From Paracoccus marinus (lineage in GTDB: Bacteria > Pseudomonadota > Alphaproteobacteria > Rhodobacterales > Rhodobacteraceae), in assembly GCF_007018965.1 (NCBI RefSeq), contig NZ_VJYZ01000005.1, positions 124,001 through 188,000 on the forward strand: 64,000 nt of DNA, in the 5' to 3' direction. The number at the start of each line of letters is the position of its first letter. Position 1 is the first letter of the stretch. Below the pieces are notes generated by a model. The model worked only from the letters and a program-made list of their open reading frames with translations, had not been told where the DNA came from and made no database searches. Shown in pieces: positions 22,224 to 22,543 of the stretch. The translations under genes were made by a program, and so were the position numbers.

Positions 22224-22543
22224 CCTCACGTGGCGAAACTGGTAAACGCAGCGGACTTCAACGGAGTGCCCGCGTGGAAACGCGCGGAGTAGAACGGCTC
22301 AAATTCGGGGAAACCTCACGGGTCGCGCCGGTGGCAATCCCGAGCCAAGCCCCGCTACGGCTAAACGGTCGCGGGGAAGGTGTAGAGACTAGACGGGCCG
22401 CAGCTTACGGCAGCCTTTCGGGGCCGCCCTGCTGAAGGGATAGTCCAGCCCACGAACGCCGCGTCATGCGGCGGCGGCGGAAGCCGAAGTGGGACGAAAA
22501 TCCGCCGCCTTCGGGCTTCCCGGTTCGAAGCCGGGCGTGAGGA
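22224..22543 (+). tRNA. tRNA-Leu(UAA) split by a group I intron
   Basis: The exons 22224-22258 and 22497-22543 join into a complete class II cloverleaf. The acceptor stem is CCTCACG/CGTGAGG with discriminator A, and T8-G9 is present. The D-arm is GCG-AAACTGGTAAA-CGC, the anticodon arm GCGGA-CTTAAAA-TCCGC gives anticodon TAA, and the variable arm has GCC-TTCG-GGC. The T-arm is CCCGG-TTCGAAG-CCGGG. The intron interrupts the anticodon between U34 and A35, the same site as the cyanobacterial tRNA-Leu(UAA) intron. Two oddities: the first pair is C1-G72 rather than G1-C72, and CCA is not encoded (ACGC follows). It lies alone between divergent alkB and convergent sufS. Confidence 0.92.
22259..22496 (+). 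ncRNA. Group I intron (subgroup IC3-like) in the tRNA-Leu anticodon loop
   Basis: The 238-base intron has no open frame of note. P1 can form between exon ACTT (22255-22258) and intron GAGT (22264-22267), with a U-G wobble at the splice site. P2 is CCGCGTG-GAAA-CGCGCGG. P4 pairs TCGGG (22305-22309) with CCCGA (22339-22343). P6 pairs CCCCGC (22350-22355) with GCGGGG (22371-22376). P7 pairs GACTA (22387-22391) with TAGTC (22441-22445). The Q-like GGCAATCCCGAGCCAAGC and R-like AGAGACTAGACGGG segments closely resemble those of cyanobacterial tRNA-Leu introns, and the last intron base is the expected G (22496). Confidence 0.9.

What the first reader, a model, noticed from the sequence alone, without database searches (positions are those of the whole stretch)
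22224..22543. tRNA-Leu(UAA) interrupted by a cyanobacterial-type group I intron
The two exons form a perfect class II tRNA-Leu cloverleaf. The 238-base insertion sits between U34 and A35, carries complementary P1, P2, P4, P6 and P7 elements, has a U-G pair at the 5' splice site and ends in G. Core segments (GGCAATCCCGAGCCAAGC, AGAGACTAGACGGG) strongly resemble those of cyanobacterial tRNA-Leu(UAA) introns. From general knowledge, alphaproteobacterial group I introns are best known from tRNA-Arg(CCU); whether tRNA-Leu(UAA) examples are already described in this order I cannot check. Lack of encoded CCA and the C1-G72 pair make the tRNA itself unusual.
Basis: partly seen in the sequence, partly recalled or inferred. 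Interest (0 to 1): 0.88.

Follow-up and report, generated by a model that had tools for sequence, protein, structure and literature searches.

The report
Self-splicing intron inside a leucine tRNA
A leucine transfer-RNA gene of a Paracoccus bacterium is split by a small RNA that very probably cuts itself out; such split tRNA genes turn out to be common in related bacteria, and some sit on inserted mobile DNA that has broken the host's own copy of the same gene.

Summary
Window 22224-22258 plus 22497-22543 spell a class II tRNA-Leu(UAA); 22259-22496 (238 nt) is a group I intron between U34 and A35. Rfam scores it 44.5 bits, E 3.5e-10, just below the curated cut-off of 50. A 58-pair structure holds in 95.3% of cells over 30 relatives, with 25 pairs changed on both sides, against 31-44% when slid.

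It is not unique. Paracoccus: 21 of 101 genomes have a match; class: 31 of 385; tRNA-Leu(UAA) is the commonest host parsed. The window intron forms a clade with three other Paracoccus genomes that share its odd exons: C1-G72, no CCA. No other UAA tRNA was found in the genome, yet UUA is unused in 16,186 window codons.

Relatives gave a stronger lead. In 12 of 51 intron-tRNA loci a truncated 5' half of the same tRNA lies upstream; two controls gave 0 of 51. In six genomes both halves of the native gene flank an insert carrying an intron-containing copy. The window shows no such relic, so its own origin stays open.

The parts
22224..22258 (+). 5' exon of tRNA-Leu(UAA): C1 to U34
   Evidence: sequence; spliced cloverleaf
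22259..22496 (+). group I intron, 238 nt, no room for an endonuclease gene
   Evidence: RF00028 44.5 bits, E 3.5e-10; covariation
22497..22543 (+). 3' exon of tRNA-Leu(UAA): A35 to A73; no encoded CCA
   Evidence: sequence; spliced cloverleaf
22255..22267 (+). P1: exon ACUU 22255-22258 with GAGU 22264-22267, U34-G wobble at the 5' splice site
   Evidence: paired in 30 of 30 rows, U-G in 30 of 30
22268..22290 (+). P2 with GAAA loop 22277-22280
   Evidence: 5 of 9 pairs changed on both sides, 90% of cells paired
22295..22400 (+). P3: 22295-22300 with 22395-22400
   Evidence: 100% of cells paired; one pair is G-C here, C-G or U-A elsewhere
22304..22344 (+). P4 (22304-22309 with 22339-22344) and P5 (22314-22315 with 22333-22334)
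   Evidence: 96.7% and 100% of cells paired; one P5 pair is C-G in 16 rows, G-C in 14
22345..22380 (+). P6 (22345-22346 with 22379-22380) and P6a (22350-22355 with 22371-22376)
   Evidence: 100% and 86.7% of cells paired
22387..22445 (+). P7, guanosine-binding helix: 22387-22391 with 22441-22445
   Evidence: 100% of cells paired, one A-U replaced by G-C in 3 rows
22401..22434 (+). P8: 22401-22404 with 22431-22434
   Evidence: 100% of cells paired, 3 of 4 pairs changed on both sides
22449..22493 (+). P9 (22449-22453 with 22489-22493), P9a (22457-22462 with 22468-22473), P9b (22476-22478 with 22483-22485, GGAA loop)
   Evidence: 89.3%, 94.5% and 100% of cells paired
22496..22496 (+). terminal G of the intron (omega G)
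   Evidence: invariant G in the 30-row alignment

Best explanation
This is an endonuclease-less group I ribozyme in the anticodon loop of the only tRNA-Leu(UAA) gene found in a Paracoccus genome. After transcription the intron folds, binds guanosine in P7, cuts after U34 at the U-G pair, then uses its terminal G to join U34 to A35, restoring the tRNA; CCA is added afterwards by the host enzyme. The structure is shown by covariation; guanosine chemistry, splicing and CCA addition are inferred from the known family. It has been inherited within a clade of at least four Paracoccus genomes.
For: RF00028 over the whole model, E 3.5e-10. 58 pairs, 95.3% of cells paired, 25 pairs changed on both sides, 0 of 500 shuffles as high on any measure, slid versions 31-44% paired. 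Complete tRNA-Leu(UAA) on splicing. No other UAA tRNA found: of 46 RF00005 matches 45 were read, and the tRNA-Leu among them are CAA, UAG, GAG, CAG; an anticodon-arm pattern with one mismatch finds only Leu(CAA). The same gene, intron and odd exons recur in three further genomes, clade support 99/100.
Against: Score below the Rfam cut-off. No transcript data. UUA is absent from 16,186 codons of 50 window ORFs, so need for this tRNA is unproven. The RF00005 search also missed the tRNA-Tyr that ARAGORN sees in the window, so the tRNA inventory may be incomplete; the assembly has 38 contigs.
Confidence: 0.92

Rival explanations
1. The gene is a leftover of an integrative element that once broke the native tRNA-Leu(UAA) and brought an intron-containing replacement; the element was later lost and the replacement fixed.
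For: Elements of this kind exist in relatives: same-tRNA 5' halves upstream in 12 of 51 loci; both halves of the native gene in G305, G396, G436, G668, G829, G1013. In three Paracoccus genomes a 5' half and an intron tRNA-Leu lie side by side without any 3' half in the stretches read, which could be the state after loss of an element. The window tRNA body is 67-76% identical to the congeners listed but up to 88% to other families (the latter were chosen as best hits).
Against: No 5' half within 2 kb of the window gene or its three clade mates; no other tRNA piece at E 0.01 in 20.5 kb around the window gene, and only weak pieces (E 7e-4 to 9e-3) of the 3' part near the clade mates; no relative of the two integrases in the window or the mates' stretches. 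The alkB-like neighbour flanks, in the same arrangement, the intron-less tRNA-Leu(UAA) of G023, so the gene may sit at an ancestral place.
Confidence: 0.4
2. The intron moved alone into a resident tRNA gene, by reverse splicing or recombination, and was then inherited.
For: The site U34/A35 is the same in 54 parsed tRNA-Leu(UAA) introns of the four genome surveys; in Paracoccus an intron-less gene (G207) and intron-bearing ones share upstream neighbours.
Against: The window clade's exons are set apart from congeners as its intron is, which fits transfer of the whole gene better.
Confidence: 0.35
3. Decayed pseudogene or chance resemblance.
For: C1-G72, no CCA, UUA unused in the window, Rfam score below cut-off.
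Against: All tRNA stems pair; exons 97-100% identical across four genomes; covariation of the intron.
Confidence: 0.05

Closest known systems
Group I introns of cyanobacterial and plastid tRNA-Leu(UAA)
   Same: Same tRNA; a review says the position is shared by cyanobacteria and plastids (PMC4033280, passages). That this position is U34/A35 is recalled.
   Different: No cyanobacterial sequence was fetched; direct similarity was not tested.
Azoarcus pre-tRNA-Ile intron (group IC3)
   Different: Other tRNA; in the tree it pairs with a tRNA with CAU anticodon of G829, outside the tRNA-Leu(UAA) group.
tRNA-Arg(CCU) introns of alphaproteobacteria
   Same: Same Rfam family; found here in L010, L016, L294, L309. 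That this host is the best known one in the class is recalled.
   Different: Inserted after position 36, not 34, in the three that the parser read so.
tRNA-Leu(UAA) and tRNA-Arg(UCU) introns of Beggiatoa and Thiomargarita
   Same: Same tRNA interrupted by a putative group I intron in Pseudomonadota (PMC4853749, passages).
   Different: Gammaproteobacteria; structures not determined there. A Pseudomonas tRNA-Leu(UAA) intron (Vepritskiy 2002) is recalled; that paper is not held.
IStrons
   Same: Partnership of a group I intron and a DNA element (PMC4227781, listing and passages).
   Different: There an intron and an insertion sequence form one element, mostly in protein genes; here an integrase element carries a whole intron-containing tRNA gene.

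Membership tests
Group I intron (RF00028) | Covariance match at the curated threshold | tested here: not met
   44.5 bits against 50; E 3.5e-10 over model 1-253
Group I intron (RF00028) | Conserved core helices P3, P4, P6, P7, P8 with covariation | tested here: met
   each 96.7-100% of cells paired; P3, P4, P7 and P8 include pairs changed on both sides, P6 never varies
Group I intron (RF00028) | P1 with U-G at the 5' splice site and terminal G | tested here: met
   U-G in 30 of 30 rows; G invariant
Group I intron (RF00028) | Guanosine-dependent self-splicing | not testable with these tools
   needs transcript or in vitro assay
Subgroup IC3 | Small core, GNRA loops on P2 and P9, tRNA anticodon-loop site | tested here: inconclusive
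   GAAA and GGAA loops seen; subgroup criteria recalled, no IC3 reference alignment available
tRNA-Leu(UAA) | Class II cloverleaf, UAA anticodon, A73 | tested here: met
   ARAGORN on spliced exons
tRNA-Leu(UAA) | G1 with C72 or U72, and encoded CCA, as in the congeners | tested here: not met
   C1-G72 and ACG in the window and three clade mates; GCGGACG/CGTCCGC in the 16 other genus loci parsed, of which 15 encode CCA and L069 reads CCC
Mobile intron with homing endonuclease | Endonuclease gene in the intron | tested here: not met
   238 nt, most of it placed in the ribozyme fold
Replacement tRNA on an integrative element | Truncated native tRNA beside the gene | tested here: not met
   none in 2 kb upstream of the window gene or its three clade mates, nor in the 20.5 kb around the window gene

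The most novel reading that the evidence does not exclude
Many tRNA group I introns of Pseudomonadota are parts of replacement tRNA genes on integrative elements. The element recombines in the anticodon arm of a host tRNA, destroys it, and supplies a whole copy of the same tRNA. In five of the six two-ended cases the intron site lies inside the sequence shared by both ends (in G668 with two mismatches), so the spliced RNA works while the DNA copy no longer offers the integrase its target. When the element is lost the intron tRNA stays; the window gene would be a late, cleaned-up case. The association in relatives is well supported (I would give it about 0.85); the shielding role and the window's descent are inferred, and counter-examples to strict shielding exist.
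Probability: 0.4. Interest if true: 0.87.

Novelty: new member of a known kind. Interest (0 to 1): 0.6.

Why it matters
The intron itself adds a Paracoccus clade with unusual exons to a known kind. The wider pattern offers a testable answer to an old puzzle: why endonuclease-less tRNA introns are patchy, move between bacteria and sit in the anticodon loop. If integrative elements carry them as replacement tRNAs, the intron is part of a mobile element's strategy rather than a neutral passenger. It also bears on annotation: a standard ARAGORN scan missed this gene.

Tried and rejected
Homing endonuclease: excluded by length. Single-copy curiosity: excluded by the family, genus, class and phylum surveys. 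Betaproteobacterial origin: the exons resemble those of Mycetohabitans and others, but its intron (L291) falls in a separate starred pair. Shielding as a universal rule: against it, G1013 is split in the T loop while its intron is in the anticodon loop; a second element of G305 carries an intron-less tRNA-Met(CAU) after a related integrase beside an intact one; G411 contig 20 has an intron-less tRNA-Leu(UAG) in that place; G524 has a degenerate tRNA-Leu-like half and no intron core in the locus. The first pattern for un-interrupted UAA arms had one N too many and was repeated correctly. The passages shown of a Sulfitobacter paper and of a mobile-element review held nothing on this.

Rows dropped and limits: my junction parser failed on 16 of 101 loci given and, by eye, misread L009, L016 and L293; L164 and L197 are doubtful; these five were left out of the tree. 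Alignment A1 used 30 of 59 references to parsed tRNA-Leu(UAA) introns. One search left out L362 (unparsed). One of 46 RF00005 matches (22 nt, E 3) was not fetched.

Full report
What is there. Spliced in a script, the exons fold as tRNA-Leu(UAA). Rfam finds a full-length group I intron at 44.5 bits, E 3.5e-10, under the curated cut-off of 50; in the whole genome it is the only match. ARAGORN in standard mode does not report the gene.

Is it more than chance. I wrote a 58-pair structure on the window intron and counted it on 30 tRNA-Leu(UAA) introns, 30 of the 59 parsed. 95.3% of cells pair, 25 pairs have changes on both sides, and no shuffle of 500 reaches any of the five measures; sliding the partners drops pairing to 31-44%. 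The P1 U-G pair is present in all 30 rows. In P3, P5, P8 and P9 the window clade differs from other rows by changes that keep the pairs. This is strong evidence for a maintained fold; splicing itself is inferred. The structure was drawn on the window row, which favours it over slid versions, above all on the share of cells paired.

Where it belongs. Named records with the same exon stretch and the intron are Paracoccus sp. 3-485-3Z, Paracoccus sp. Z118 and Paracoccus aeridis JC501, with the contig lengths of G234, G225 and G246. These three and the window form one intron clade, 99/100, inside a large set of mostly alphaproteobacterial tRNA-Leu(UAA) introns and apart from the other Paracoccus introns; 38 of 78 inner branches are open and the bootstrap had not settled. 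Flanking genes are an alkB-like membrane protein upstream and suf-type genes downstream, named by me from the translations without a family search.

How common. RF00028 matches occur in 16 of 198 family genomes, 21 of 101 Paracoccus genomes, 31 of 385 class genomes and 34 of 398 phylum genomes; these samples overlap, and the wide searches use stricter filters. My parser gave tRNA-Leu(UAA) for 19 of 19 further genus loci, 14 of 20 parsed class loci (29 given) and 11 of 16 parsed phylum loci (21 given). The 17 family matches read as 12 Leu(UAA), 2 Arg(CCU), and one each of Arg(UCU), Thr(GGU) and Thr(UGU), partly by eye. So the finding is ordinary as an intron, though I saw no paper that describes it in Paracoccus (listings; open-licence library only).

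The odd exons. C1-G72 and the lack of CCA are shared by all four clade members. Elsewhere in this genome 44 of 47 ARAGORN calls, some loci counted twice, encode CCA. No other UAA tRNA was found. UUA is used 0 times in 16,186 codons of 50 window ORFs chosen by codon-position G+C, so the gene may mainly back up UUG reading; this may explain why its exons could drift. The tRNA body is 67-76% identical to the congeners listed but up to 88% to other families, though the latter were selected as best hits.

A wider pattern. In three Paracoccus genomes (G204, G208, G243) the native tRNA-Leu(UAA) stops at the anticodon loop and a complete intron-containing tRNA-Leu(UAA) begins about 150 nt later. Comparing each of 86 spliced intron tRNAs with its own locus, mostly with 1.5-kb flanks, showed 5' halves upstream on the same strand in eight (L142, L145, L153, L155, L158, L293, L297, L302), a short match in a viral contig (L276) and an inverted half downstream of L007. 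I then fetched longer stretches and tested with a library of tRNAs: a same-tRNA 5' half lies within 2 kb upstream in 12 of 51 loci; the same search downstream gave 0 of 51, and hits by mismatched tRNAs alone 0 of 51. The 51 are not a random draw: they include the loci already noticed, so 12 of 51 is not a rate. Among 176 intact intron-less tRNAs the figure was 4: one tandem full copy, one unexplained case (L133) and two in viral contigs that also carry intron tRNAs.

In six genomes both ends were found: G305, G396 and G436 (Leu UAA), G668 (Lys CUU), G829 (CAU anticodon, taken as Ile) and G1013 (Arg UCU), with inserts of about 2.6 to 33 kb by coordinates. The outer acceptor halves of the broken genes complement each other by eye in G305, G396, G436 and G668; G829 has one mismatch. 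In five of six the sequence shared by both ends lies in the anticodon arm and spans the intron site of the carried copy (in G668 with two mismatches); in G1013 the break is in the T loop. Phage Daredevil carries a similar gene, read by eye as tRNA-Lys(UUU), near its annotated integrase, with a 16-nt copy of the spliced anticodon arm about 150 nt away.

Integrases. An integrase lies between the 5' half and the intron tRNA in G305, G396 and G678, and as a shorter frame in G411. Pfam supports those of G396 and G678 above cut-off; that of G305 is just below, and the G829 protein matches nothing, being named from its motif. None of the other stretches read, including G436, G668 and G1013, holds a relative of these two proteins at E 1e-6, so there the recombinase is unidentified. 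Searching 347 class genomes with the G396 protein found 12 genomes. Of 16 loci read, four have a tRNA-Leu(UAA) half before the integrase (G305, G396, G411, G621), and all four carry an intron tRNA-Leu after it; G621 was new to the set, and its contig ends inside the intron. Seven lie beside an intact tRNA-Met or tRNA-Arg and show no intron core within the locus; one has an intron-less tRNA-Leu(UAG), one (G524) a degenerate half without an intron core, and three no tRNA piece. The second G305 element carries an intron-less tRNA-Met(CAU) of its own. So carried tRNAs need not have introns.

No spare copy. In G305, G396, G436, G678 and G204 the only exact matches to an un-interrupted UAA anticodon-arm pattern are the truncated halves, so the intron tRNA appears to be the sole intact gene there, as far as one pattern can tell.

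I saw no paper on introns in element-borne replacement tRNAs (listings; open-licence library only).

The window in this light. Neither the window gene nor its clade mates show a 5' half or a related integrase. Its alkB-like neighbour also flanks the intron-less gene of G023 in the same arrangement. Whole-gene replacement, intron-only gain and old inheritance all remain possible.

Noticed in passing
L289 (NZ_CP139688.1) and L288 (NC_004464.2, pCTX-M3): A complete intron-containing tRNA-Leu(UAA) (read in L289) lies beside an AAA ATPase gene and aac(3)-IId on resistance plasmids. The window query hits 1286 of 72,556 plasmid records and 625 of 5426 E. coli genomes, with no annotated feature in the 20 E. 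coli rows shown; most hits were not inspected, and the plasmid table lists no RNA genes. Its left end is 82% identical over 51 nt to that of the Paracoccus G204 insert.
   Followed up: partly
L290, Gordonia phage Daredevil 41851-42108: Intron-containing tRNA, read as Lys(UUU), near the integrase gene, with a second copy of the spliced anticodon arm. A 2014 review says that phage introns observed to date sit in protein genes (PMC3984707, passage).
   Followed up: partly
L351/L382 (G305), L348/L386 (G829), L344/L388 (G396), L346/L396 (G436), L343 (G668), L347/L394 (G1013): Native tRNA genes split by inserts that carry an intron-containing tRNA of the same anticodon.
   Followed up: yes
window, 50 ORFs: UUA is used 0 times in 16,186 codons, while UUG is used 66 times.
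   Followed up: no
L291, Mycetohabitans megaplasmid: A betaproteobacterial intron-containing tRNA-Leu(UAA) also has C1-G72, but encodes CCA.
   Followed up: no
L419 (G305, about 2944031-2945185): A second element with a related integrase carries an intron-less tRNA-Met(CAU) next to an intact one.
   Followed up: partly
L142, L148, L150, L160, L182, L278: Introns parsed in tRNA-Lys(CUU) and tRNA-Lys(UUU) of class genomes and viral contigs.
   Followed up: no
L109 (G208): Upstream genes match those of the intron-less tRNA-Leu(UAA) of G207; two downstream genes also occur beside that of G217, but in the other orientation to the tRNA, so loss of an element there is unproven.
   Followed up: partly
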